Of a stretch of DNA of 64,000 bases, positions 44,560-56,545 are shown in pieces. Each line of letters starts with the position of its first letter. Within the stretch, counting starts at the first letter, position 1. Source of the DNA: Synechococcus sp. MIT S9220 (GTDB lineage: Bacteria > Cyanobacteriota > Cyanobacteriia > PCC-6307 > Cyanobiaceae); contig NZ_CP047958.1 in the NCBI RefSeq assembly GCF_014304815.1, forward strand, positions 992,001-1,056,000. The letters run 5' to 3'. The position numbers and the translations under genes are program-made. The notes beneath the pieces were generated by a model. It ran no database searches, had not been told where the DNA came from, and saw nothing but the letters and a program-made list of their open reading frames with translations.

Positions 44560-45168
44560 TTAATTACGGACTTCCAGCCGATCCGTGCCGCTGCGTTCGA
44601 TCAGTTGAGCCAGTTCGAGCATGTCGGACCTGTTGACCAGGCCGATGCAACCCAGAGTTCCGCTATTGGCGTTCTGAAGCCCCGCGCTGGGATCCAGGTG
44701 GATCCCCAGCACTCTGCGACCGGTGGTGAAGGTGGGCTCGATGCTGATCCATACAGGACCAAGCTCGGGGTAATGACCGTCGGTCAAGGGTTCAACGACA
44801 CCCACGCTGTAATTCCCGATCGGCAGGGGCGCACGGCTACCGAGCTGGTCACGATTGGCGTTCTGACGATTGGCTCGGCCACTGACAGCGTCAAAACGAC
44901 GCAGGGGTTCACCAGGAATCTCGATTTTGAGGTTCCAGATGGGATCTCCGGTTGTTGCCAGCCGACGATCGGTGCGCTCGAGAACAAGGGTGGGAGCAGG
45001 ATCGGGCTTCGGCGCTTCAGGCTCAAGCAACGCCATCAAGGATTGCCGTTTGAACGGTTTGGCTTCAGCTCTCGCTGCAGACGTCAAACCTGTCCCTGCC
45101 AGAACCATGGCCAGGGTCAGACCTGAGAGCAGGCTGCTGAACAGAGGACGAGTTCTGACGATTTGCAT
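44560..45168 (-). CDS. L,D-transpeptidase-like (YkuD-fold) exported protein with variant active site
   Basis: 202 residues with a signal peptide (LSGLTLAMVLAGTGLTSAAR) and a YkuD-like domain. The catalytic region reads GIHLDPSAG, then NANSGTLGCIGLVNRSDM. The canonical motif is H-x14-17-[S/T]HGC: the first His and the nucleophilic Cys (about 17 residues later) are kept, but the His before Gly-Cys is Leu and the following Arg is Gly. It may still process peptidoglycan, or be a specialised or inactive relative. ATG start at 45168. It converges on the MliC-like gene. Confidence 0.8.
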   Translation of the reverse strand: MQIVRTRPLFSSLLSGLTLAMVLAGTGLTSAARAEAKPFKRQSLMALLEPEAPKPDPAPTLVLERTDRRLATTGDPIWNLKIEIPGEPLRRFDAVSGRANRQNANRDQLGSRAPLPIGNYSVGVVEPLTDGHYPELGPVWISIEPTFTTGRRVLGIHLDPSAGLQNANSGTLGCIGLVNRSDMLELAQLIERSGTDRLEVRN

Positions 45169-45237
45169 CCCGTTGGCAGAAAAACGTGCCTGTCCTAAGG
45201 GGGATGATTATCGCTTGATGAATGAATAAACGGTTGT

Positions 45238-45828
45238 TCAGCTGGCCTCGAGTTGTCGCCAGTCCAGGCCAGGACAATGGGCGACGATGGCCGCCGTCGT
45301 CCTCATGTAGTTCGCATAGGAGGGAAGCTCACGTAGCAGTGCGCGTTCCTCGCGCCGCGCTTTGCCGGTGAGAACTTTGATCAGAAGCAGAAACAGCAAC
45401 AGATGCAGCATGCTTCCCAACGCGATCACCACTCCCAGAGAACAGACCAGAACCGCTCGGTAGAGAGGATGGCGGCAGCGTGCATAGACGCCTGTGGTGA
45501 CCAGATCAGCTCCCGGTTTCGGATCCGGTAGCGGAGAAAGGCTGGGCCCCAGTGTCAGAAATCCTTGGACGGCCAGGCCCAGGCCGATTGTCAGGGTGAT
45601 CAGGCCCATGATTTGAGCTGCAGCAGGCCAGGCAATCCCGAATAACCCCGGATTTGGCCATGCAGGGATCAGATGACAGCTGATCAGGGCCAGCTGTGCC
45701 ATCAACCACCACTCACCACGTCGGTTGTTGAACCAGCCGTCCCAGCTCAACCCCCAGCCTGTGAATGCTTGTTTCCAGCCGCTTATGGCGGGGCTGTCTC
45801 CATCACGACTGCTCCTGAGTGGGACCAT
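45238..45828 (-). CDS. Isoprenylcysteine methyltransferase-like membrane protein
   Basis: About 196 residues with four or more membrane segments and the C-terminal ICMT/PEMT-type signature: GVYARCRHPLYRAVLV near residue 125 (RHP being the AdoMet-binding heart) and EERALLRELPSYANYM near 170. Members methylate small lipids or isoprenoid-linked groups; bacterial substrates are generally unknown. ATGs at 45849 and 45828 are possible; GGAGGT sits 12 bases before the latter, so I chose it. It diverges from the SDR gene with almost no spacer. Confidence 0.85.
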   Translation of the reverse strand: MVPLRSSRDGDSPAISGWKQAFTGWGLSWDGWFNNRRGEWWLMAQLALISCHLIPAWPNPGLFGIAWPAAAQIMGLITLTIGLGLAVQGFLTLGPSLSPLPDPKPGADLVTTGVYARCRHPLYRAVLVCSLGVVIALGSMLHLLLFLLLIKVLTGKARREERALLRELPSYANYMRTTAAIVAHCPGLDWRQLEAS

Positions 45829-45854
45829 GCTCCAATTCTGACCTCCCATCAATC

Positions 45855-46559
45855 ATGAGAACCGTCGTGATCACTGGTTCCAACAGGGGAATCGGGGCCG
45901 CGGTGGCGCGCACGTTGATCAAGCAAGGGCAGCGACTCTGCCTGGCAGTGCGCGATCCCAAGGCCTTGTCGGGAACCGATCTGGACCCCGATCTATTGCC
46001 CGATCGCCTGATGTCATGCCCCTATGACGCTCGTGTTCCAGAAGATGCTCAACGGGTTGTCGACACGGCTCTGAGCCGGTTTGGATCCCTGGATACGCTC
46101 ATTCACTGCGCTGGAATCCTGCGTCGGACTCCCCTGTTGTTCAGTGAAGAGCAACGCGCTGAACCGGATGAACTCTGGAGCGTGAATGTGATGGGTCCTT
46201 GGTGGTTGACTCGGGCTGCCTGGCCTGCCCTCATTGATTCTGGACGGGGTCGGATTCAGGTGCTGGTTTCGATGAGCGGCAAGCGCTGCAAAGGTTCGCT
46301 TGCTGGATATACCGCGAGCAAATTCGCATTGATGGGTCTCTGCCAAACCATGCGCAACGAGGGTTGGGATCAGAACATTCGTGTGACCGCTGTCTGCCCT
46401 GGTTGGGTCAATACCCAAATGGCCGCGGGGGTGAAAACAATGCCTCCCGAGCAAATGACACAGCCTGAGGATCTGGCCAGTCTCTGCGCGCATCTGCTCA
46501 CGCTTCCGTCGGCGGCGGTGCCTTTTGAATGTGCCGTTAATGCAGCGCTCGAGCGTTGA
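45855..46559 (+). CDS. Short-chain dehydrogenase/reductase
   Basis: 234 residues of the classical SDR family: the cofactor motif TGSNRGIGAAVA near residue 7, HCAGIL (the NNAG equivalent), the catalytic Ser in VLVSMSGKRC and the Tyr/Lys of the YxxxK motif in GYTASKFALMG, then PGWVNTQMA. Substrate specificity cannot be read from sequence. The frame is open from 45819 but the ATG at 45855 (MRTVVITGS) is the family-consistent start. Its stop abuts that of the converging secreted-protein gene. Confidence 0.92.
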   Translation: MRTVVITGSNRGIGAAVARTLIKQGQRLCLAVRDPKALSGTDLDPDLLPDRLMSCPYDARVPEDAQRVVDTALSRFGSLDTLIHCAGILRRTPLLFSEEQRAEPDELWSVNVMGPWWLTRAAWPALIDSGRGRIQVLVSMSGKRCKGSLAGYTASKFALMGLCQTMRNEGWDQNIRVTAVCPGWVNTQMAAGVKTMPPEQMTQPEDLASLCAHLLTLPSAAVPFECAVNAALER

Positions 46560-46910
46560 TCAATCCAGAGGGATCTCTCCTCGGGCGCAAATGTCGTTCC
46601 AGCAGAGTGTCCGTTCCGCGACCCAACGGGCCTGCACTCCCGTCCAGTTGCTGTTGCCATTCCGCTGCATCTTCATGCGCCCGCTGCCGTCATGGTGGAA
46701 GCGCACGGTTGTGTTCTCAAACGCCAGTTGCCAGCTGCTGCCAGGTTGATCGCTCTCATAGCGACAGTCTTGCCACGCTTGATGCTGTTGCCGACATTCC
46801 ACGGGCACGCTGACTGCGGGTTGGGCTGGCGCAGCCAGGCCGAGGCCAGCCGCAAGCAGCACGCTGGCCTGGCTGATGGAGCGGATGAGAGGTGCCAGTG
46901 GATAGCGCAC
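46560..46910 (-). CDS. Small secreted protein, function unknown
   Basis: About 116 residues read from GTG 46910: a signal peptide (SISQASVLLAAGLGLAAPAQ) and a mature region with four Cys, two in VECRQQHQAWQDCRYESD and two in LCWNDICARG, probably disulfide-bonded. The frame extends to an ATG at 46994, but that would place a Cys-rich, non-signal-like stretch before the signal peptide. I do not recognise the family. It diverges from purS by 100 bases. Confidence 0.65.
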   Translation of the reverse strand: MRYPLAPLIRSISQASVLLAAGLGLAAPAQPAVSVPVECRQQHQAWQDCRYESDQPGSSWQLAFENTTVRFHHDGSGRMKMQRNGNSNWTGVQARWVAERTLCWNDICARGEIPLD

Positions 46911-47010
46911 GGACTGGACTTTGCAGCAAGGGGCTTTTTTCAACGTGCATTTCGTCGAACGAAAGCGGTCCCCTGGCCTGTCAATATTTAACAATTGCCG
47001 CTCGGAGCTC

Positions 47011-47265
47011 GTGCCGCGTTACCAAGCCCGCGTTCTGGTGCACCTGCGCCCATCGGTACTGGATCCAGCTGGTGAGGCTGCCAGGGCAGCCGCGTCCCGT
47101 CTCGGTGTGGAGGGTGTGGAGCGACTGCGCATCGGCAAAGCTGTGGAACTGGAAGTCGAGGCCTCTGATGAGGCGGAAGCACGCCGAAATCTGGAGCTGC
47201 TCAGTGATCGGCTGCTTGCCAATCCTGTGATCGAGAACTGGACTCTTGAGTTGACCCAGTCATGA
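47011..47265 (+). CDS. purS: Phosphoribosylformylglycinamidine synthase subunit PurS
   Basis: 84 residues. PurS forms the FGAM synthase complex with PurL and PurQ and helps ammonia transfer in purine synthesis. The sequence [20 protein letters not shown] near residue 8 and the closing [11 protein letters not shown] are typical. It begins with GTG at 47011 (MPRYQARV); the frame extends upstream but homologues begin here. Its TGA overlaps purQ by four bases, so the two are co-translated. purL is not in the window. Confidence 0.92.
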
Positions 47266-47915
47266 CCATCGGCGTTGTCGTTTTTCCGGGATCGAACTGC
47301 GACCGTGATGTTCGTTGGGCGACCGAGGGCTGCTTGGGGATGCCAACGCGTTACCTCTGGCACGAGGAACGTGATCTGAGTGGTCTTGATGCGGTCGTCC
47401 TTCCCGGGGGATTCAGCTATGGGGATTACTTGCGCTGTGGTGCAATCGCCAGATTTGCTCCAGTCCTTGAATCACTGCTCAGTTTCGCTTCATCCGGTGG
47501 ACGGGTCCTAGGCATCTGCAATGGTTTCCAGGTGCTGACAGAGCTGGGACTTCTACCTGGCGCGCTCACCCGCAACCGTGATCTTCATTTCATCTGTGAA
47601 GACACTGCGCTTTCTGTGGCGAGTGATCGCTCGCCATGGCTGTCTTCCCGTGGCCGGGGAAGCCAGTTTTCCCTGCCGATTGCCCATGGAGAGGGGCGCT
47701 ACCAATGCAGTGATGACACGCTGAAGCAACTTCAGGACGATGACGCCATCGCCTTGCAGTATTGCGTGAACCCCAATGGTTCCGTCTCGGATATCGCCGG
47801 CATCACCAATGCCTCGGGTTCGGTGCTCGGACTAATGCCTCATCCTGAGCGTGCTTGTGATCAGCAGACGGGAGGAACGGCAGGTCGAGCCATCCTGGAA
47901 GCGCTGCTCTCCTGA
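47262..47915 (+). CDS. purQ: Phosphoribosylformylglycinamidine synthase, glutaminase subunit
   Basis: Class I glutamine amidotransferase that supplies ammonia for FGAM formation. 217 residues: [15 protein letters not shown] near residue 6, [18 protein letters not shown], the nucleophilic Cys in [19 protein letters not shown] near residue 86, and the His-x-Glu pair in [11 protein letters not shown] near the C-terminus. It overlaps purS by four bases (ATGA). The S66 peptidase gene starts three bases after its stop, so all three form one operon. Confidence 0.96.
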
Positions 47916-47918
47916 CCC

Positions 47919-48893
47919 ATGCGTCGTCGTTCTCTTCTGGCGCTGGCTCTTTCCGCCGGCTCAGGAGTTGCTGTGTCCTTGGCTGGAGGTCATGGCAAAG
48001 CCGCGTCCAGGTCGCGTCAACCTCGGCCAGTGCCTCCCCTTCGCCGAGGCTCACGGCTGAGAGCCATCAATCCAGGCACGTGGATGGATCCTGAAACGGA
48101 TTTCACGCCATTGCTGCAGCGATTCGCCGCCCAAGGTTGGCATCTTGAAATTCCAGAGAGCGTCAGAGGTCAGTGGCAATGGTTCTCGGCCACCGATGAT
48201 CAGCGGCGTGCCTCAATCGAAGACGCCTGGAACGACCCCACTCTCGATGGCGTGGTGTACGTGGGAGGTGGCTGGGGTGCAGCGCGTGTGCTGGAGTCTG
48301 GCCTGCGGTTTCCTGATCGCCCCTTTTGGTCTCTGGGTTTCTCTGACAGCAGTGCTCTGCTACTCGCCCAGTGGCAGGCCGGTCTGCTGGGAGCCATTCA
48401 TGGCTCTGCCTGGGGAGTCGAGGAGCAGTGGCAACGCACGGTTGACCTGCTGAGCGGACGACCGACGCAACCATTGCAAGGACGAGGACGTCGCGGTCGT
48501 CAGGCACGGGGACGACTGGTGGTTACGAACCTCACGGTTGCCACCCATCTGATTGGGACCCGTTGGTTCCCCTCGCTCAAAGGGGCGATTCTGGTGCTCG
48601 AGGATGTGGGCGAGGCGCCCTATCGAGTGGATCGCATGCTCACTCAGTGGCGCAGCGTTGGTCTGTTCAAGGGTTTGGCCGGAGTGGCCTGTGGTCGCTT
48701 CAGCTGGAAAGAAGACGATGTTCTCCCTGGCGATTTCTCCATGCCGGAAATCCTTGACGAACGTCTCAGTGATCTCGGCGTACCTCTTGTCATGGATCTT
48801 CCCCTTGGTCATGGTCTGCCGAATTGGGCACTGCCTCTTGGACGCGAAGCATTGCTCGATGCATCATCAGGCCAACTCACACTGCAGGCCTAA
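47919..48893 (+). CDS. S66-family serine peptidase (LD-carboxypeptidase type)
   Basis: 324 residues: a twin-arginine-like or simple signal region (MRRRSLLALALSAGSGVAVS), then an S66 domain. The nucleophilic Ser lies in LGFSDSSALLLAQW near residue 141, the catalytic Glu in LVLEDVGEAPYRVDRML near 228 and the His in DLPLGHGLPNWALP near 300. S66 enzymes remove terminal D-alanine from murein tetrapeptides for wall recycling, although some act on microcin-like substrates. It follows purQ by three bases; the functional link with purines is not evident. Confidence 0.9.
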   Translation: MRRRSLLALALSAGSGVAVSLAGGHGKAASRSRQPRPVPPLRRGSRLRAINPGTWMDPETDFTPLLQRFAAQGWHLEIPESVRGQWQWFSATDDQRRASIEDAWNDPTLDGVVYVGGGWGAARVLESGLRFPDRPFWSLGFSDSSALLLAQWQAGLLGAIHGSAWGVEEQWQRTVDLLSGRPTQPLQGRGRRGRQARGRLVVTNLTVATHLIGTRWFPSLKGAILVLEDVGEAPYRVDRMLTQWRSVGLFKGLAGVACGRFSWKEDDVLPGDFSMPEILDERLSDLGVPLVMDLPLGHGLPNWALPLGREALLDASSGQLTLQA

Positions 48894-48903
48894 AGGGTCT
48901 CGT

Positions 48904-49584
48904 TCAGCGTCTGTTGCGTGCCTCATTTCTTCGGGTTTTGCCTCTTTTCTTTTTTCTCAACAGCAAGTCCATTGGAATCATTCCAAGAGTCAGATAGGGC
49001 ACGAATTGAGGCGAAAATTCTGCGGCCAGGCCAATCAACAGAAAGGCGGCAACGAAGCTTGCCCCTCGATATTTTTTGAGTCCTGAACCCTCACGACCTT
49101 TGATGAGGGCTGACTGCTCAAGCAGCTCGGGCTTCTGCCAGGCATGGATTGCGATAAGCCATCCAATGCCGCTAATCAATGCAAGAGTCCACCAGTAGAG
49201 AAGGCCGACTCCCTTGCTTGCAATCATCTGCCCATCATTCAATGAACCATAGAGTGCTGTGGGCCAGGGAAGGAAAACAATTAATGCCATCCATAATGAA
49301 TTCAGCCAAAAAATTATTCCATCAAAAGTTCTCATCGAATTGAAGACCTGATTGTGCTTAAGCCACAACACAGAAAGGATTAAAAAGCTCAGCCAAAATG
49401 CAAAAATCTGAGATGAGTTGTCGCTAATCACTTGCCATATCGATTCACCACTTGTCGATTTGATGTCAACCAGCGGAAGCAGTTGAAGAGTGATGGCAAT
49501 CGCAACAACAGCATCAGTGAAGTTGATCAGTCGGTCGAATGATCGCCGCTGAACGGGCGAGATTGAATTCTGTTCGCCGTCCAT
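48904..49584 (-). CDS. TMEM175/DUF1211-family channel-like membrane protein
   Basis: 226 residues with about six membrane helices. The DUF1211 signature R-x3-F-S/T-D-A-V-x-A-I is visible as RLINFTDAVVAIAITLQLLP near residue 18. Eukaryotic TMEM175 is a lysosomal K+ channel, and bacterial relatives conduct K+; here Ser of the usual FSD is Thr. The tail is very basic (RKKKRGKTRRNEARNRR). Base composition is more A+T-rich than the adjacent genes. It converges on the S66 peptidase gene. Confidence 0.85.
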   Translation of the reverse strand: MDGEQNSISPVQRRSFDRLINFTDAVVAIAITLQLLPLVDIKSTSGESIWQVISDNSSQIFAFWLSFLILSVLWLKHNQVFNSMRTFDGIIFWLNSLWMALIVFLPWPTALYGSLNDGQMIASKGVGLLYWWTLALISGIGWLIAIHAWQKPELLEQSALIKGREGSGLKKYRGASFVAAFLLIGLAAEFSPQFVPYLTLGMIPMDLLLRKKKRGKTRRNEARNRR

Positions 49585-49820
49585 TCGAGATTGATCAAAG
49601 GATTCTCATGGTAGATCTCACCTCTCTATTGGCTCACCTCCTCTTTTCTGATTCGATCAGTGTGATCACTGAATCAAGTGTTGCAAGTCTCTTTGTTCGT
49701 CATCTGCTCCCTGAGATTGGTTTGTTCAATCAGGTTGCTTCGGGCTGATCATGATTGACGCAGGTTTGATTCGCTATTGAGCGAGACGCCGCTGAATCTT
49801 TGAAGGCCTCAAACAGCCGT

Positions 49821-49849
49821 AAAAAAACAGGGGCCTGATGGCCCCTGTT
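49821..49849 (-). terminator. Intrinsic terminator of the class II aldolase gene
   Basis: On the minus strand, ACAGGGGCC, a four-base loop and GGCCCCTGT are followed by seven T. It lies about 25 bases beyond the fbaA stop codon. Confidence 0.92.
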
Positions 49850-49875
49850 CGATGCAAGTTGCGTGGTCAAGTTGA

Positions 49876-50949
49876 TCAGACAGCAACAGCAGCTTTGGGA
49901 TCCAGTGCGCCTTTGGCATAGAGGCCGGCGTAGTAGGTGATGCTCTGCTGTTGAATCTTGCTGGCGTTGCCTGCGGCCCAGAACTGCTGATAGCGGTCGA
50001 GACAGACCTGCTTCATGTATTTGCGAGCTGGCTTGTTGAAATGGCGGGGATCAAAATTGGCTGGATCGGCGATCGCCGCCTCACGCACTGCCGCAGTAAA
50101 GGCAAGGCGATTGTCGGTGTCGATGTTCACTTTGCGAACACCGTTGCGAATTCCTTCCTGGATTTCCTCCACAGGAACCCCATAGGTTTCAGGAATTGAA
50201 CCACCATGCTTGTTGATCATCTCCAACCACTCCTGGGGCACGGAAGAGGAGCCATGCATCACGAGGTGCGTGTTGGGGATCGCTTTGTGAATCTCAGCGA
50301 TTCGGCTGATTGCCAGCACTTCACCGGTGGGTTTGCGGGTGAATTTGTAAGCACCATGGCTGGTCCCGATCGCGATGGCCAGTGCGTCGCACTTGGTTTT
50401 GGCCACGAAATCCGCAGCTTCTGCTGGATCTGTCAGCAGCATGTCCTTGGAGAGCTCACCTTCGAAGCCGTGGCCGTCTTCAGCCTCACCTTTTCCGGTT
50501 TCCAGTGAGCCCAGGCATCCCAGCTCACCTTCGACACTCACGCCAACGGAGTGAGCGAAATCAACAACCTGCTTGGTGACAGCAACGTTGTAGTCGTAGC
50601 TGGCGGGTGTTTTGGCGTCAGCTTCGAGGGATCCATCCATCATCACGGAGGTGAATCCATTGATTGCTGCCGAATAGCAGGTGTCAGGAGCATTGCCATG
50701 GTCCTGATGCATCACCACGGGAATGTGGGGATAGGTTTCAGTGGCAGCCAGGATCAGGTGGCGCAGAAAGATCTCACCTGCGTAGCTGCGTGCGCCACGG
50801 GAAGCCTGCAGGATGACCGGACTATCGGTCTCGTCGGCCGCTTCCATGATTGCCTGCACCTGTTCAAGGTTGTTGACGTTGAATGCAGGAATGCCGTAGC
50901 CGTTTTCGGCAGCATGGTCGAGCAGAAGCCGAAGCGGAACGAGCGCCAT
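49876..50949 (-). CDS. fbaA: Fructose-bisphosphate aldolase, class II
   Basis: Zn-dependent aldolase of the Calvin-cycle subtype, forming fructose and sedoheptulose bisphosphates. 357 residues: the opening [20 protein letters not shown], metal-binding His in [17 protein letters not shown] near residue 84, the [11 protein letters not shown] region, [13 protein letters not shown] near 190-205, [12 protein letters not shown] near 232 and [19 protein letters not shown]. Its ATG lies 11 bases past a hairpin and T-run, an unusual leader described separately. A class I aldolase gene lies directly upstream on the same strand. Confidence 0.97.
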
Positions 50950-50960
50950 AGAGAAAGTCC

Positions 50961-50997
50961 AAAAAAAAGCCCTATCGGACTAAAAGGTCCGTAGGGC
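50961..50997 (-). terminator. Hairpin and T-run immediately before fbaA start codon
   Basis: On the minus strand GCCCTACGGAC and GTCCGATAGGGC form a stem of about 11 pairs around CTTTTA, followed directly by eight T. The T-run ends 11 bases before the fbaA ATG. It may terminate the upstream class I gene, or act as a leader or attenuator for fbaA. Confidence 0.8.
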
Positions 50998-51001
50998 CGA
51001 G

Positions 51002-51031
51002 ACTTTACCTGAGTGGTGTTCAATTTGTCAC
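51002..51031 (-). promoter_or_regulatory. Candidate fbaA promoter
   Basis: On the minus strand GTGACA (51031-51026) and TAAAGT (51007-51002) are separated by 18 bases. A start site about 7 bases on would put the hairpin at the very 5' end of the fbaA mRNA. Confidence 0.35.
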
Positions 51032-51076
51032 GCGTGCCTGTCTCGCAAGCGATGTCAGGGTGTGCGTGATGCTGGA

Positions 51077-52144
51077 TCAGTAGGTGTAGCCCGCTACGAA
51101 CAGCTGCTCATCGGAGGAGGGCTGTGATCCGGGTACATAGCGACCGAGTGAGGCCTCAGAGTTGGCCTGGGCGCGTGCCAGCAGTGCTTTCTGGCCGGCT
51201 TCCAGGTTCGTGCCAGCCCATCCCTTCAGGCAGGAGTGCTGCAGTGCTCTTCCGTAAGAGAAGCCAAGATTCCATTTCGCTTTGCGCTCGATGGTGTTCA
51301 TGTGGTTCAGGTAAACCGAAGCAGCTTCTTCGCTCAGACCACCGGACAGGAACACGATGCCGGGAACGCTTGCTGGGACGCTGCGCTCCAGAGTGCGCAC
51401 GGTCATGGCCGCCACTTTGGCTGGGTCTGCTTTCTCGGAACAATCGGCTCCCTGCACGGTCATTGAGGGCTTCAACAGGGTTCCTTCAAGCAGAACACCG
51501 TTGGCCTGGCAAGCGTGATACACCTCTTGGATCACGTGCTCCTGAATTCGGGCTGTGGTTTCGATCGTGTGATCACCATCCATCAGGATCTCTGGTTCCA
51601 CAATCGGCACAAGACCTGATTCCTGGACTGAGCGTGCATAACGAGCCAGCCCCCAGGCGTTCTCCCGAACAGACAGAGGTGAGGGGCAGCCGTCAGAGGT
51701 GATTTGCAGAACAGCGCGCCATTTTGCGAAGCGTGCTCCTTGTGCGTAGTAGTCGGCTGCACGCTCGACCAGTCCGTCCAGACCAGTGCAAAGGGTTTCA
51801 ACCGAGCCTGCGCCGACGAGCGGACGGAGGCCCATGTCAACCTTGATGCCGGGAATGATGCCCAACTTGCCAAGTTTGTTGACCATGGACTCGCCGTCGG
51901 CATGGTTTTGGAAGAGGGTCTCTTCGTAAAGAATGGCTCCGCTGATGAAGTCTCCGAGACCGGCTGCGGTGAAGAGCATTCCGCGATAGGCCTGGCGATT
52001 GGCTTCGGTGTTCTCAACTCCGATGGAGCCCAAGCGCTTGCCGATGGTCTTGGTGGATTCATCCACAGCAAGAATCCCTTTGCCAGGTGAGGCGAGAGAT
52101 TGTGCGGTTGCAATCAGTTCGGAGGAATAATCAGACAGTGCCAT
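51077..52144 (-). CDS. fda: Fructose-bisphosphate aldolase, class I
   Basis: 355 residues of the Schiff-base (class I) aldolase family, close to the eukaryotic type: GILAVDESTKTIGKRLGSIG near residue 23, RGMLFTAAGLGDFISGAILY, KVDMGLRPLVGAGSVET, FAKWRAVLQI, and the Schiff-base Lys in VLLEGTLLKPSMTVQG near residue 228. The terminal Tyr (GYTY) is like that of animal and plastid enzymes. It is evolutionarily unrelated to the class II aldolase encoded 130 bases downstream. Start is ATG 52144. Confidence 0.96.
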   Translation of the reverse strand: MALSDYSSELIATAQSLASPGKGILAVDESTKTIGKRLGSIGVENTEANRQAYRGMLFTAAGLGDFISGAILYEETLFQNHADGESMVNKLGKLGIIPGIKVDMGLRPLVGAGSVETLCTGLDGLVERAADYYAQGARFAKWRAVLQITSDGCPSPLSVRENAWGLARYARSVQESGLVPIVEPEILMDGDHTIETTARIQEHVIQEVYHACQANGVLLEGTLLKPSMTVQGADCSEKADPAKVAAMTVRTLERSVPASVPGIVFLSGGLSEEAASVYLNHMNTIERKAKWNLGFSYGRALQHSCLKGWAGTNLEAGQKALLARAQANSEASLGRYVPGSQPSSDEQLFVAGYTY

Positions 52145-52456
52145 TTGATTCTTCGGAATTGAGAGAGTCTCGGGGTCCAGAAGGACACCTAAGCCTCTCT
52201 GTTTACACCCTTAAGTGAGATTTGCTACGTAGTAGCTGAAACATTTGATTGTTGCTGTCCTGATTGGTTGCAGCGCGCTGGTAACTGGGCTAAGCGATTT
52301 CAGGCTGATGTCACTTGTCCTTACAGCCGACAAGCTGGTGTCAATTCCTTCTCCTCAATCCAGCTCGCTTTGTTCTGGACTGTGTTGCATAAAAAAGCCG
52401 GCTCCTCAAGGAGCCAGCTTTTTGGTCTTTGAAGTCTCAATCAGGAGTAGGCCGAA
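52145..52456. other. Spacer upstream of the class I aldolase gene
   Basis: About 310 bases. It should contain the fda promoter on the minus strand and carries the terminator at 52391-52424. A 79-codon plus-strand frame starting at 52245 does not look protein-like. Confidence 0.5.
52391..52424. terminator. Bidirectional intrinsic terminator
   Basis: AAAAAGC-C-GGCTCC and GGAGCC-A-GCTTTTT form a long stem with one mismatch around TCAA, with A- and T-runs at its base. On the minus strand it ends the histidine-phosphatase lipoprotein gene. Confidence 0.85.
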
Positions 52457-53206
52457 TCAAAGCTCAGAGAGGGCCTGCCACTGATTGGGAAGGATTTTGG
52501 CAACCAGCTCGAAATTGCCATCACCGAGGGGCTTTGCAACGTAGGCAACACCCATGGGTGCGGGATAAATTCCATTGGTTGGAACAACCGGCATCGTCAC
52601 ACCCTGGAAGGGGTCATCGTGTCCAACGAGGAATGTGTTTTTGCCGCCTTCAGGTTTCGCGGACATCAAGGGAGCAACGCGCTTGGCGTAGTTCTCGTAA
52701 TCCTCCGGAGTGCACTCAACACAGGGCAGGAAATTCAGATTTGAGTTCTTGGTGTAGGTGCCGAAAGCCAAATCAGCTGTGTTGTACGCACGGCAGTAGT
52801 CGCTTGAGATGACATCTCCAACAGGAATGCCTGCGGCCTTGATGCCTTCACCGATCGTTTTGGCATCAGCCTTGCCTTCATCACTCAGGCGACGCTGAGT
52901 GCTGCAATCAGCGAGATCCAGTTCTGGGCTGACCTGGTCGCCCCAGTCCTTCGTGGTTTTGGCATGACGGATGTAGATGACATGACCGCCATCCCTCAGC
53001 GCGCTAACGAGAGCCTTGTCGTCGACTGTGTTGACGAAATCTTTGTTGTTCTGTTCGCCAGAAAGGGTGGTCTCGTTTTGTTCATAGGCCTCAACCTCGC
53101 TGTTGCTGGAAGCTGATTGGTCCTTGGCTGAATCCTTGCTGACCGTTCCAGATGAACACGCCGCCATCAAGAGGAGGGCTGCAAAACAGGTTGCTTTTTT
53201 GATCAT
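52457..53206 (-). CDS. Lipoprotein of the histidine phosphatase superfamily
   Basis: 249 residues. The N-terminus has a lipoprotein signal (ATCFAALLLMAACSSG, lipobox Cys near residue 17) and a low-complexity acidic linker to about 60. A histidine-phosphatase domain follows: HVIYIRHAKTTKD near residue 75 carries the phospho-accepting RHA motif, with a second His in FLVGHDDPFQG near 198. It is thus anchored in a membrane facing the periplasm. Substrate unknown; such proteins often act on small phosphoesters. Start is the ATG at 53206. Confidence 0.88.
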   Translation of the reverse strand: MIKKATCFAALLLMAACSSGTVSKDSAKDQSASSNSEVEAYEQNETTLSGEQNNKDFVNTVDDKALVSALRDGGHVIYIRHAKTTKDWGDQVSPELDLADCSTQRRLSDEGKADAKTIGEGIKAAGIPVGDVISSDYCRAYNTADLAFGTYTKNSNLNFLPCVECTPEDYENYAKRVAPLMSAKPEGGKNTFLVGHDDPFQGVTMPVVPTNGIYPAPMGVAYVAKPLGDGNFELVAKILPNQWQALSEL

Positions 53207-53322
53207 TGATCAAAGAAAATTCATATTGATTAAAGCGATTTCATATTTATGTGGCATTTTCAAAGTCACGCAAAGCCGTCACTGTTGATACGAAGTTGAA
53301 GGTGTGTAGTTCGTTGTCTGAA

Positions 53323-54402
53323 TCAACGTGATGTCAACGTCCTGTCACAGGCCTGCTGGCTCGCGAGACCTTCAGCAAGGCCAGGCACCATCGGATGGCC
53401 CTTTTGAATGCTCTGCGCCCACCAGCTCTGAAGACGCGCGACCGGTGCGACGCGTCCATCACTCCACGTCGTCGCGAAGCGCAGATCCTCATCCGGTTGG
53501 ACGTTGCGAGGCGCATCTCCGCCTTGTTGCAAGGTGAGCGAAAAGCCATGCACATAATCCTTCTGGTTCTCACTCCCCAGAACCAGACTGCCCTCGGATC
53601 CGTAGATCTCAATCCAGCAACCACGACCATTGCGGGCAACCGAGGACAGGGCGAGTTGTGCGGCGACGGTCCCACCTTGATGGGTCGCTAAGTCCACATT
53701 GATCAGGGCGATGTCGTCAGCATCAACCGGCCGCATGTTGCCTTCGCAATCGGGTCGCTGTGCAATGGAGGTGCGTGTCATGGCCTGTGGTTCTCCAACA
53801 GAGCCGATCAACCACGCCAAGGTGTCAAAAGCATGGGTGCCAAGCGCTCCGATGACGCCTCCACCTTGATTGGCCTGTGAGTACCAGTTCCAGGCTCGTT
53901 GCGGGTTGGCTCTGCTGCTCATCAACCAATCCAGTTTCACCAGCCAGGGGGTCCCCACAGCTCCCTGCTCGAGAAGGCGTGCTGCCTGTTGAAACAGGGG
54001 AACTGCCCTGTATTCGAAATCCACAGCAACGCTGAGACCTCTGCCGATGGCTTCGCGCTGCAGATCCGCCACGTCCTGCGCATTCAGGGCGACGGGCTTC
54101 TCAAGCAGCAGATGTTTCCCCGCCTTCAGCGCTCGCATCGCCAGATCAAAACGAGGTGCCGGGGGTGTGGCAATGATCACTGCATCGACACGGGAATCCT
54201 CAAGGAGTGAGTCCCAGCAGTGGTAACCCTTCAGGCCGGAGTTGCTGCAGGCCTCATCCAGTCGATCCTGCCTTCGGTGCCAGAGAGCGACAGGTTCCAG
54301 CTCGGGAACGTTCTGCAGAGCGGGCAGATGAACCGATTCGCCGAAGCCGAGGCCGGCGATGGCAACACCAATCGGGCGTTGAGAGATCGGACTGGGAGCC
54401 AT
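53323..54402 (-). CDS. Gfo/Idh/MocA-family oxidoreductase
   Basis: 359 residues: an N-terminal Rossmann domain with VAIAGLGFGESVHLPALQNV near residue 12, VIIATPPAPRFDLA near 75, the family EKP motif in HLLLEKPVALN near 96, then an alpha/beta domain including WNWYSQANQGGGVIGALGTHAFD where the second catalytic His lies near residue 180. Members act on sugars or inositols with NAD(P); which one cannot be told. ATG 54402 is favoured over 54441, which would overlap the upstream gene. Confidence 0.92.
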   Translation of the reverse strand: MAPSPISQRPIGVAIAGLGFGESVHLPALQNVPELEPVALWHRRQDRLDEACSNSGLKGYHCWDSLLEDSRVDAVIIATPPAPRFDLAMRALKAGKHLLLEKPVALNAQDVADLQREAIGRGLSVAVDFEYRAVPLFQQAARLLEQGAVGTPWLVKLDWLMSSRANPQRAWNWYSQANQGGGVIGALGTHAFDTLAWLIGSVGEPQAMTRTSIAQRPDCEGNMRPVDADDIALINVDLATHQGGTVAAQLALSSVARNGRGCWIEIYGSEGSLVLGSENQKDYVHGFSLTLQQGGDAPRNVQPDEDLRFATTWSDGRVAPVARLQSWWAQSIQKGHPMVPGLAEGLASQQACDRTLTSR

Positions 54403-54433
54403 TGAAAAGCGGGCGGCGGATACAGGGATGCAG

Positions 54434-54844
54434 TTAGACAAGTTCTGAACTGCAAACGGCGTTGATGACTTCGGTGATCAGATCATCCTTGGCCGGCGCT
54501 TCCCAGTCAGCCCTGAAGCGGGGTAGTCCGTTCTTCTGTGTATCTCGATAGAGCGACTGATCACAATCGATTTCCATCACCACAAGAGTCCCCAGGGCAG
54601 GCGATTCATCCTCGGTTTTCAGGCTGTATCGACTGAGAACCGAAACATTGCCCTCTCTTGTTCTGCGGACGCTTCCTGCGTCCCACCACTGCTGCCCTTC
54701 GCTGGTTGATGGCACTTCACGCCAATCAACAGGACCGGCGAAAATCGGCTGAGCGAAAGCCATCTGCATTAAAACCACAACCAGTGAAGCCAACAGTGCT
54801 GATGTCAGCCACTGATGGACTCGTGTCCTCAGATTGGTGTTCAT
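54434..54844 (-). CDS. Exported protein of unknown function
   Basis: 136 residues. The N-terminal segment ([20 protein letters not shown], residues 14-33) is a signal peptide or anchor; the mature region ([20 protein letters not shown] and onwards) is beta-rich with two Cys that could form a disulfide. I do not recognise the family. Its ATG overlaps the accD stop codon (ATGA), so the two are translationally coupled, and the oxidoreductase gene follows about 30 bases later. No function can be inferred from acetyl-CoA carboxylase alone. Confidence 0.75.
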
Positions 54845-55722
54845 GCCTCGACGGCGATCTCGGGTCGACAGCCATGCAGGCTTAAAAGAGTTGCCAAGGT
54901 GTTCTTCAGCTGTGTTCTCGGCACGATTGTGTCAACGAACCCATGCTCTTGGAGGTATTCGGCCGTCTGGAAGTTATCGGGAAGCTTCTCCCGCAGGGTT
55001 TGTTCAATCACTCTCCGGCCGGCAAAACCGATCAGAGCCTTGGGCTCGGCGAGGATTAAATCGCCGAGCATGGCGAAGCTCGCCGTGACGCCTCCTGTGG
55101 TGGGGTGCGTCAGCAGCGGCATGTAAAGCACACCCGCTTCGCGATGGCGTTCCAGCGCTCCGGAAATCTTGGCCATCTGCATGAGGCTCAGCATGCCTTC
55201 CTGCATGCGTGCGCCTCCGGAGGCACAGACGATGAGTAAGGGAAGCTGTTTGGCTGTGGCCACCTCGATTAGCCGGGTGATTTTTTCTCCCACCACCGAG
55301 CCCATGGATCCGCCCATGAAACGGAAATCCATCACCGCAAGGGCCATGGGGATCTCGTCCACTCGGCACAATCCCGTAATCACCCCATCGCGAAGCCCTG
55401 TGCTGGCTTGGGTTTCCCGCAGACGATCGGCATAGGCCCGTCGATCCTTGAACCCAAGCGGGTCAGTAGGAGTCAGGTCTTCGTCAAGCGGTTCAAAGCT
55501 TCCTTCGTCGGCAATGATCGCGATTCGCTCAGCACTGAAGATGCGGTGGTGATAACTGCAGTTGCCGCAAACACTTGCGTTGGCCAGAAGGTCTTTGCGA
55601 TAGACCACCTGGGAGCACTCAGGACATTTGCTCCAGAGACCATCCCCCTCCTCGGGTTCTTGCGCGACCTTGACCACGGACTGACCCTTGCGGCGATCAG
55701 CGAACCAGTCGAAAAGAGACAC
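54841..55722 (-). CDS. accD: Acetyl-CoA carboxylase carboxyltransferase subunit beta
   Basis: With AccA forms the carboxyltransferase that makes malonyl-CoA, the committed step of fatty acid synthesis. 293 residues: an N-terminal four-Cys zinc ribbon ([15 protein letters not shown], then [12 protein letters not shown]), then the crotonase-fold CoA site with [19 protein letters not shown] near residue 170 and [20 protein letters not shown] near 210, ending [16 protein letters not shown]. Length is normal. It leads an operon with the coupled exported-protein gene. Confidence 0.97.
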
Positions 55723-55996
55723 GGGGACAATCCAGACCAGCCCATTAAAAGACGGACCGGTCCAAGAATTATGCCATCGGGGCTTCTCTTCTTTTCCAGG
55801 AGCCTTTTCAAGACGATGTTGATGGAATTTTTTGTCTTAATTCCGCTCACAGTCACACCATCAATCGAGCACCGAAGTAGGCGGTACTGGCGCGTAACAT
55901 TTGTCACTCAAGAGGTGTGATTCCGGCCGTTTTTAATCTTTGCTCTAGGGCTTACATGCGGTTGTTTGTCTATAAAAAATTATTGGCATTCTTTTG

Positions 55997-56545
55997 ATGG
56001 CATCGCATACTTCGGCAATCAATGAACATCTTGCGCTTGAGTTTCAGGCTAGTCATACCTACCTGGCGATGTCGATTTGGTTGCGTGAGAGAGATTTAAT
56101 TGGTTTCTCTAGCTACATGCTCAACAAAAGCACTGAGGAACGAGGCCATGCCTCTAAATTCATTGCCTATCTAGTTGATAGCGAATGTAATGTTCAGCTG
56201 CCTACGATTGAGTCGCCTGAGAGGGAGTGGCAGTCTGTTAAAACGCTTTTTGACAAGGTGTATGAGATGGAAAAAACTGTCACCAAGTCGATCAATAATA
56301 TCTATACGCTTTCGGAAAATGAAGGGGATAGGACTGCCACAGCCATGCTCGATTGGTTTGTGGGTGAGCAGCTGCAGGAAGAATCCGAAGCTCGATTTGT
56401 TCTGAAACGACTGCGCTTGGCCGATTCCAGTCCAGCGGCATTGATCTTGCTTGATCAGCAATTTCTCGATGGAACTTTGCTGGCCAACGTCAAAGCAGGA
56501 GGAGCTTTTGATATTGCAGGCGCTGGTGGTGGTGCGGCTGTCTGA
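55997..56545 (+). CDS. Ferritin
   Basis: A 182-residue four-helix ferritin that stores iron and detoxifies Fe2+. Ferroxidase ligands appear in LALEFQASHTYLAMSIW near residue 15 (Glu), STEERGHASKF near 49 (Glu, His), EMEKTVTKSINNIY near 93 and GEQLQEESEARF near 125. A Gly/Ala-rich C-terminal tail is present. Marine Synechococcus ferritin of this type has been studied structurally, as I recall. ATG at 55997, with a TTG one codon earlier. The upstream 270 bases are A+T-rich. It is not linked to feoAB but serves the same metal. Confidence 0.93.
   Translation: MASHTSAINEHLALEFQASHTYLAMSIWLRERDLIGFSSYMLNKSTEERGHASKFIAYLVDSECNVQLPTIESPEREWQSVKTLFDKVYEMEKTVTKSINNIYTLSENEGDRTATAMLDWFVGEQLQEESEARFVLKRLRLADSSPAALILLDQQFLDGTLLANVKAGGAFDIAGAGGGAAV

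What the first reader, a model, noticed from the sequence alone, without database searches (positions are those of the whole stretch)
50950..51076. Terminator-like hairpin between two unrelated aldolases, 11 bases before the class II start codon
The class I (fda) and class II (fbaA) aldolase genes are in tandem on the minus strand. Between them is a stem of about 11 pairs followed by eight T, and the T-run ends only 11 bases before the fbaA ATG. A candidate promoter (GTGACA-N18-TAAAGT) would start transcription at or just before the stem. Either fbaA has its promoter so close that the fda terminator sits in its 5' end, or the hairpin is a leader that controls fbaA by attenuation or mRNA stability. 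That would be a simple switch between two enzymes for the same reaction.
Basis: partly seen in the sequence, partly recalled or inferred. Interest (0 to 1): 0.6.

Follow-up and report, generated by a model that had tools for sequence, protein, structure and literature searches.

The report
Start-site hairpin of a Calvin-cycle aldolase
In ocean cyanobacteria that carry two unrelated enzymes for the same sugar reaction side by side, the hairpin between the two genes looks like the start of the second gene's own message rather than the end of the first, so the two enzymes can probably be controlled separately.

Summary
Relatives suggest what they are. The promoter GTGACA-N18-TAAAGT (or a close form) stands before fbaA in 92 of 92 distinct upstreams with fda directly upstream and in 24 of 77 without. 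None of 6 loci from genomes with fda but no fbaA hit has it. In two genomes fda has decayed to 56-64% identity while promoter and leader stay at 82-95%. So promoter and hairpin serve fbaA, though the promoter type is associated with fda. The hairpin would lie at or near the predicted fbaA RNA start. Its arms fit each other better than arms swapped between genomes, and in the window's clade it varies far less than third codon positions. The poly-T tail is local: at least 7 of 8 T in 5 of 29 Synechococcus-type leaders, at least 6 of 8 pyrimidines in 28 of 29. Another hairpin, just after the fda stop, is a candidate fda 3' end in Synechococcus. I favour a leader for mRNA stability and translation over attenuation; in this clade terminator or attenuator roles are not excluded. 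No RNA data were available.

The parts
51077..52144 (-). fda, class I fructose-bisphosphate aldolase (red-algal plastid type according to PMC1919352)
   Evidence: NF033379; tandem and origin described in PMC1919352
51028..51069 (-). Hairpin 1, behind the fda stop; its 3' arm overlaps the first four bases of the -35 box; candidate fda RNA 3' end
   Evidence: Fold; window z -2.37; 15 Synechococcus-type representatives mean z -2.49 (4 of 15 above -0.5), 13 Prochlorococcus-type representatives mean +0.29
51026..51031 (-). fbaA promoter -35 box GTGACA
   Evidence: 92 of 92 distinct upstreams with fda; conservation profile
51002..51007 (-). fbaA promoter -10 box TAAAGT; start predicted at about 50998-50992
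   Evidence: start position inferred, not measured
50969..50997 (-). Leader stem-loop of fbaA, 11 pairs, 6-base loop, one bulged A (the reported hairpin)
   Evidence: pair counts; arm-swap test; low variability in 7 clade genomes
50961..50968 (-). T8 run; a mixed pyrimidine-rich tract in other Synechococcus-type leaders
   Evidence: T at least 7 of 8 in 5 of 29, pyrimidine at least 6 of 8 in 28 of 29
50950..50960 (-). GGACTTTCTCT, leader next to the start codon, no GGAG/GAGG/AGGA motif; complementary to AAAGTC of the -10 box in read-through RNA
49876..50949 (-). fbaA, class II fructose-bisphosphate aldolase
   Evidence: TIGR01521
49825..49850 (-). Terminator-like hairpin with T run behind fbaA
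   Evidence: -20.6 kcal/mol

Best explanation
The hairpin is the stem-loop near the 5' end of the fbaA mRNA, not primarily the end of the fda mRNA. SHOWN BY COMPARISON: a conserved promoter (51031-51002) lies between the two genes; promoter and leader stem-loop stay with fbaA beside an intact, a decayed or a missing fda, and the promoter was not found where fda has no fbaA; the two arms of the stem fit each other better than arms of relatives. INFERRED: RNA starts within a few bases of the stem, so the 5' end is largely in a helix. That helix slows decay that depends on a single-stranded 5' end (triphosphate removal, RNase E entry; known from E. coli) and leaves the pyrimidine-rich stretch before the ATG free for ribosome loading without a Shine-Dalgarno motif. 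fda RNA would end at or near its own hairpin (51069-51028), so the two aldolases form separate transcription units and can follow different programmes.
For: Promoter in 92 of 92 distinct upstreams with fda directly upstream and 24 of 77 without; in 0 of 6 fda-bearing loci from genomes without an fbaA hit. Beside decayed fda in two sister genomes: last 100 bases of fda 56-64% identical to 7 relatives with fda, hairpin-1 region 64-86%, promoter 85-95%, leader 82-92%, fbaA 85-95%. In 7 genomes of the window's clade variable columns: fda third positions 132 of 200, hairpin-1 region 22 of 45, promoter 7 of 30, stem-loop 4 of 29, T-run region 1 of 8, last bases before ATG 1 of 10, fbaA third positions 48 of 100 and 146 of 256. 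Native arms fold better than swapped arms: 29 Synechococcus-type leaders -12.12 against -10.67 kcal/mol, 24 of the second group -12.21 against -10.35, 0 of 1000 permutations each; third group (32) -4.61 against -4.30, p 0.002-0.009. Covariation score 0.162 against 0.097, 0 of 500 shuffles. 29 representative leaders mean z -1.26, 10 of them at p 0.05 or below. Pyrimidine tract kept in 28 of 29. Hairpin 1 as alternative fda end. Structured 5' ends hinder RppH and RNase E (PMC3997798, passages); S1-mediated initiation at pyrimidine-rich tracts proposed for Prochlorococcus (PMC5607370, passages); fbaA of MED4 is plotted with Calvin-cycle genes, which peak at dawn (PMC2663038, passages and legends).
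Against: No RNA end or half-life was measured; start site and function are inferred. Promoter type and fda are associated (92 of 92 with fda, 24 of 77 without), so promoter and leader may have arisen with the fda insertion. In this clade the hairpin is a textbook terminator by shape. Leaders of the other promoter type are not clearly structured: 18 representatives, mean z -0.64; leaving out L024, L039 and L045, whose leaders are of the GTGACA type, 15 with mean -0.69 (my arithmetic); 10 further loci had no recognisable -10 box. Some counts are weak: pairs changed on both sides 5 against 3.7 (58 of 500 shuffles as high), further pair types 301 of 500. In the third group most swapped leaders are as stable as the native one (median 0.87-0.90) and control splits gave p 0.058-0.084. 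Two of 29 representatives have positive z. 7 of 29 leaders carry AGGA or GAGG. In Synechococcus PCC 7002 the passages shown link long half-life to 3' terminators with a U tract, not to 5' hairpins (PMC7406221). Presence of RppH or RNase E in this genome was not checked.
Confidence: 0.6

Rival explanations
1. In the window's clade the hairpin plus T8 is the intrinsic terminator of fda, and the fbaA promoter simply overlaps it; fbaA RNA survives because termination so close to the start is inefficient.
For: -19.3 kcal/mol stem followed directly by T8, about as strong as the hairpin behind fbaA. Hairpin 1 has no T run, and in S. elongatus defined ends without a U tract are structured in only 46% (PMC13289151, passages). 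There, more consecutive U means less read-through.
Against: The stem is kept where fda is missing or decayed; T of 7 or more is missing in 24 of 29 Synechococcus-type leaders, 21 of these with fda upstream. In the 6 fda-only loci fda is followed by other hairpins with T runs (read by eye). Only 22% of S. elongatus units end in hairpin plus U tract, so fda need not have one (PMC13289151).
Confidence: 0.2
2. Attenuator: most RNA started at the fbaA promoter ends in the T run as a short RNA of about 35 nt, and a signal lets RNA polymerase pass.
For: Promoter directly before a complete terminator shape and the gene directly behind it; stem and T run strongly conserved in 7 clade genomes. In a group of Prochlorococcus-type leaders two mutually exclusive hairpins can be drawn.
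Against: No terminator tail in 24 of 29 Synechococcus-type leaders. I saw no antiterminator arm or leader peptide in the 46-nt leader (by eye). No Rfam family at gathering score, only hits with E 0.49-0.89 far below it.
Confidence: 0.12
3. Start-site gate: RNA reading through from fda contains the transcribed -10 sequence, which pairs with the leader and hides the fbaA start (Synechococcus type) or completes a terminator-like stem (a Prochlorococcus-type group); RNA started at the fbaA promoter lacks that arm and stays open.
For: AAAGUC pairs with GGACUUU in the fold of the window spacer. Predicted openness of the start region 0.59 in own RNA, 0.39 in read-through RNA, 0.50 with shuffled prefixes (mean of 9 Synechococcus-type representatives); 6 of 9 have at most 12% of 40 shuffles as closed. 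A hairpin starting in the -10 box, -8 kcal/mol or better, in 8 of 11 long leaders with fda and 8 of 15 without.
Against: 3 of 9 Synechococcus-type and 5 of 9 long-leader representatives, and 3 of 3 of the third group, do not stand out from shuffles. The -10 side is nearly invariant for promoter reasons, so the pairing has no independent covariation. The fda link is weak, and only 3 of 11 and 2 of 15 also have 5 or more T behind the stem.
Confidence: 0.12
4. Chance or neutral structure in a short GC-rich leader.
For: Consensus scans near chance; leader z -1.35; weak parts.
Against: (covariation score).
Confidence: 0.06

Closest known systems
Tandem class I / class II aldolase locus of marine Synechococcus and Prochlorococcus (Rogers, Patron and Keeling 2007, PMC1919352; parts 1-2 of 4 and passages seen)
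   Same: Same gene order and patchy distribution of fda; the paper raises the question whether the two genes form an operon.
   Different: The parts and passages seen describe no promoter, leader or hairpin in the spacer.
Stabilising 5' stem-loops of bacterial mRNAs (PMC3997798, passages)
   Same: Stem-loop at or near the predicted RNA 5' end, start codon outside the stem.
   Different: Start site and stabilising effect not measured; leader only about 46 nt; the evidence cited is from E. coli.
Intrinsic terminators and leader attenuators
   Same: GC-rich stem followed by T8 in the window's clade.
   Different: T tail lacking in 24 of 29 Synechococcus-type leaders; no antiterminator or sensing element seen.
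S1-dependent, Shine-Dalgarno-free translation leaders of cyanobacteria (Mutsuda and Sugiura 2006, only as cited in PMC5607370)
   Same: Unpaired pyrimidine-rich stretch directly before the ATG.
   Different: Not tested; 7 of 29 related leaders carry AGGA or GAGG.

Membership tests
Intrinsic (Rho-independent) terminator | GC-rich stem directly followed by a U tract | tested here: met
   Window: 11 pairs, T8, -19.3 kcal/mol
Intrinsic (Rho-independent) terminator | Stem and U tract conserved together among relatives | tested here: not met
   T at least 7 of 8 in 5 of 29 Synechococcus-type leaders, all five in the window's clade
Intrinsic (Rho-independent) terminator | RNA 3' end in the U tract | not testable with these tools
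   No RNA data
Terminator of fda | Element lost when fda is lost, kept when fbaA is lost | tested here: not met
   24 of 77 upstreams without fda keep the promoter; 0 of 6 fda-only loci, from two genera, have it; kept beside decayed fda. But 92 of 92 with fda have it, so the two are associated
Transcription attenuator | Alternative antiterminator pairing or sensing element | tested here: inconclusive
   None seen in the window leader; mutually exclusive hairpins in another group; no Rfam family at gathering score
Stabilising 5' stem-loop of an mRNA | Transcription start at or within a few bases of the stem | tested here: inconclusive
   Conserved promoter puts the start at about 50998-50992; not measured
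Stabilising 5' stem-loop of an mRNA | Paired structure maintained by selection | tested here: met
   Arm-swap test, covariation score, low variability; other measures are at chance level
Stabilising 5' stem-loop of an mRNA | Loss of the stem shortens mRNA half-life | not testable with these tools
   Needs a decay assay
S1-dependent leader without Shine-Dalgarno | Pyrimidine tract and no SD motif before the ATG | tested here: met
   Window: 15 of the last 18 bases are pyrimidines, no GGAG/GAGG/AGGA; binding of S1 not tested

The most novel reading that the evidence does not exclude
A start-site-gated leader: the fbaA -10 box doubles, in RNA, as a pairing arm. Read-through RNA from the acquired eukaryotic-type fda carries that arm and folds into a closed (or terminating) form, while RNA started at the fbaA promoter lacks it and stays open. 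The native gene would thus be insulated from the acquired gene upstream by its own promoter sequence, without any regulator.
Probability: 0.12. Interest if true: 0.7.

Novelty: new member of a known kind. Interest (0 to 1): 0.4.

Why it matters
The 2007 paper on this gene transfer (PMC1919352) left open whether the acquired aldolase and the native one are co-expressed as an operon, which bears on whether they can take separate roles. A conserved promoter and leader between them point to separate units, in abundant marine phototrophs, and make the question testable with transcript-end mapping. Genomes where fda has decayed or is missing are natural deletion experiments.

Tried and rejected
Considered and put lower: (1) fda terminator as the general role, because the element stays with fbaA. 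(2) A known RNA family: no Rfam match at gathering score in 45000-56000; a permissive search of 50900-51100 gave NsiR1, suhB and FMR1-AS1_1 at E 0.49-0.89, far below their gathering scores. (3) A repeated element: the promoter pattern (exact, N17-19) and the spacer each occur once in the own genome. (4) A leader hairpin universal in the family: not supported for the other promoter type. (5) An NtcA-like box: GT-N10-AC is present in 25 of 33 promoter representatives but overlaps the -35 box; the NtcA consensus and its usual position are recalled. (6) Published start sites for this gene: the words looked up in PMC5069720 and PMC5607370 gave no mention of it; PMC7393227 mentions fbaA only in expression lists (passages); a 2014 ISME Journal paper tried by recalled DOI is not held. 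No report of this leader was noticed in the listings of nine searches; these cover open-licence PMC papers only, and I saw titles and abstract starts, not the papers, except those named here.

Many loci are the same genome twice; therefore counts 169 distinct upstreams of 215 loci. 'Without fda' there means no fda homologue within 400 bases upstream in the locus, not absence from the genome; absence was checked in the genome for G216, G205 and G075. Of 29 genomes without an fbaA hit, 14 were searched for fda; the 6 positives belong to two genera, and most of the 8 negatives are incomplete. L176 was dropped because the script did not recognise its start. One leader with N was dropped (93 of 94 used). 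G212 was left out (partial fbaA). L039 ends at a contig edge and counts as 'without promoter'. The strict pattern (157 of 215 loci) missed some leaders; the relaxed pattern gives the final counts. The 92 upstreams with fda include copies with internal stops (G242, G238). Alignment A1 holds 29 of 36 Synechococcus-type leaders: L007, L041, L114, L121, L125 and L144 were left out as near-duplicates (L114 has a T9 run) and L028 as a different type. profiles 33 representatives of 131 loci with 18-base spacing; 25 loci with 17 are set aside. The groups 'Synechococcus-type', long-leader ('LL' in the scripts) and 'HL' were assigned by leader sequence or length; the ecotype names behind those labels are recalled, not taken from a call. 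The identity level of unrelated sequence under the alignment was not measured.

Full report
WHAT IS THERE. On the minus strand fda (class I aldolase, 51077-52144) is followed after 127 nt by fbaA (class II aldolase, 49876-50949). The spacer holds, in order: a hairpin right behind the fda stop (51069-51028), GTGACA (51031-51026), 18 bases, TAAAGT (51007-51002), the reported stem (50997-50969), T8 (50968-50961), GGACTTTCTCT and the ATG. The spacer with the ATG folds far better than shuffles (z -3.97). The exact promoter pattern and the spacer occur once in the 2.42-Mb genome. The best-matching named record fetched is Synechococcus sp. AG-673-A03, fbaA protein 100% identical.

WHOSE ELEMENT IS IT. 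I compared 215 loci upstream of fbaA, 169 with distinct sequence. All 92 distinct upstreams with an fda homologue have GTGAC-N17..20-TANANT at the right distance from the ATG; 24 of 77 without fda within 400 bases have it as well; 53 of 77 do not, one of them cut by a contig edge. So promoter type and fda are associated, and the promoter may have arisen with the insertion. Still, it does not depend on fda. Of 14 searched genomes without an fbaA hit, 6 (two genera) have fda, and none of those 6 loci contains the promoter. Genomes G205 and G075 have no fda hit, but decayed fda sequence lies upstream of fbaA (L211, L212): its last 100 bases are 56-64% identical to 7 relatives with fda, the hairpin-1 region 64-86%, the promoter 85-95%, the leader 82-92%, fbaA 85-95%. 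In G216, also without an fda hit, promoter and hairpin remain (L207). I therefore assign promoter and hairpin to fbaA.

IS THE STEM MAINTAINED. In 7 genomes of the window's clade 4 of 29 stem-loop columns vary, against 132 of 200 fda third positions, 22 of 45 columns of the hairpin-1 region and 146 of 256 fbaA third positions beyond the first 300 bases. Across 29 distinct Synechococcus-type leaders 78.5% of cells pair; sliding the partners by 1-3 columns drops this to 18-49%. The covariation score exceeds all 500 shuffles, while pairs changed on both sides (58 of 500 as high) and further pair types (301 of 500) do not stand out. Swapping 5' and 3' halves between genomes shows that native halves fold better in the Synechococcus-type and long-leader groups (0 of 1000 permutations each) and weakly in the third group (p 0.002-0.009); splits outside the hairpin show nothing in the first two groups and p 0.058-0.084 in the third. 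The third group's hairpin has a different sequence at the same place. Over 29 representatives of 93 leaders the mean z is -1.26; 10 reach p 0.05 and 2 have positive z. Sequences are related, so this is not a strict probability. For loci without the strict promoter pattern the mean z over 18 representatives is -0.64, and -0.69 over the 15 that are truly of another type, with several almost unstructured leaders.

TERMINATOR OR NOT. By shape the window hairpin is a strong terminator (-19.3 kcal/mol; the hairpin behind fbaA has -20.6). But the T run is local: T at least 7 of 8 in 5 of 29 leaders, while pyrimidines make up at least 6 of 8 in 28 of 29. That suits a pyrimidine tract better than a U tract as the conserved property. 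A separate hairpin directly behind fda is supported in the Synechococcus type (15 representatives, mean z -2.49, though 4 of 15 lie above -0.5, AG-673-A03 among them) and not in the Prochlorococcus type (13 representatives, +0.29). It lacks a T run. A 2026 study of S. elongatus finds hairpin plus U tract at only 22% of transcription units, and finds only 46% of defined ends without a U tract to be structured (PMC13289151, passages); so a missing canonical fda terminator would be unremarkable, but hairpin 1 as the fda end is not assured. A terminator role in the window's clade remains possible.

HOW IT PROBABLY WORKS. Inferred: RNA starts at or just inside the stem (about 50998-50992). Structured 5' ends hinder RppH and RNase E in E. 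coli (PMC3997798, passages), and pyrimidine-rich tracts are proposed to load ribosomes through S1 in Prochlorococcus (PMC5607370, passages). In MED4 fbaA is plotted with Calvin-cycle genes, which peak at dawn (PMC2663038, passages and legends); according to PMC1919352 MED4 has only the class II gene. Against the stability reading, the passages seen of a decay study in Synechococcus PCC 7002 link long half-life to 3' terminators with a U tract (PMC7406221). None of these functions was tested for this leader.

A BOLDER READING. In read-through RNA the -10 sequence AAAGUC is complementary to GGACUUU before the ATG. Predicted openness of the start region falls from 0.59 (own RNA) to 0.39 (read-through) over 9 Synechococcus-type representatives, against 0.50 with shuffled prefixes; 6 of 9 stand out, 3 do not. 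In the long-leader group 4 of 9 stand out, in the third group 0 of 3. In the long-leader group a hairpin whose 5' arm begins in the -10 box reaches -8 kcal/mol or better in 8 of 11 leaders with fda and 8 of 15 without. Because the -10 box is fixed for other reasons, this stays a hypothesis.

WHAT IS KNOWN. The tandem and the red-algal origin of fda are published (PMC1919352, parts 1-2 of 4 and passages), with the open question whether the genes form an operon. I noticed no description of the leader in the listings of nine searches of open-licence papers; primary-transcriptome papers outside that library may hold the start site.

VERDICT. Observation confirmed, interpretation partly supported. 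It is best read as a conserved fbaA promoter with a leader stem-loop: a new member of a known kind, of moderate interest because it suggests, by comparison, that two redundant enzymes are transcribed separately.

Noticed in passing
window 51069-51028 (-): A second hairpin directly behind the fda stop, its 3' arm running into the -35 box of fbaA; sequence differs between Synechococcus-type clades while a stem is kept in 11 of 15 representatives; not seen as a group feature in the Prochlorococcus type.
   Followed up: partly
window 51031-51018 (-): GT-N10-AC overlapping the -35 box, in 25 of 33 promoter representatives with the main spacing; may mark a regulator site.
   Followed up: partly
L211 and L212, upstream of hairpin 1: Decayed fda remnants in two sister genomes (G205, G075) beside a well-kept fbaA promoter and leader.
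   Followed up: yes
L146/L148/L150/L151 (genome G242) and L145/L147 (genome G238): fda copies with internal stops: G242 at 43% identity with many stops, G238 with one. A promoter and leader before fbaA are still recognisable.
   Followed up: partly
L149 (G004:C11:189540-189665): A second short fda fragment (residues 3-44) about 1.2 kb upstream of an intact fda.
   Followed up: no
L021, L038, L105, L110 and other long leaders: Two mutually exclusive hairpins can be drawn in the fbaA leader, the first starting inside the -10 box.
   Followed up: partly
fbaA tree of 41 loci: Promoter type and fda presence look patchy on the fbaA nucleotide tree; loss versus exchange of the upstream region was not resolved.
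   Followed up: no
window 52394-52421: A symmetric terminator-like hairpin with T runs on both strands, behind the minus-strand gene 52457-53206.
   Followed up: no
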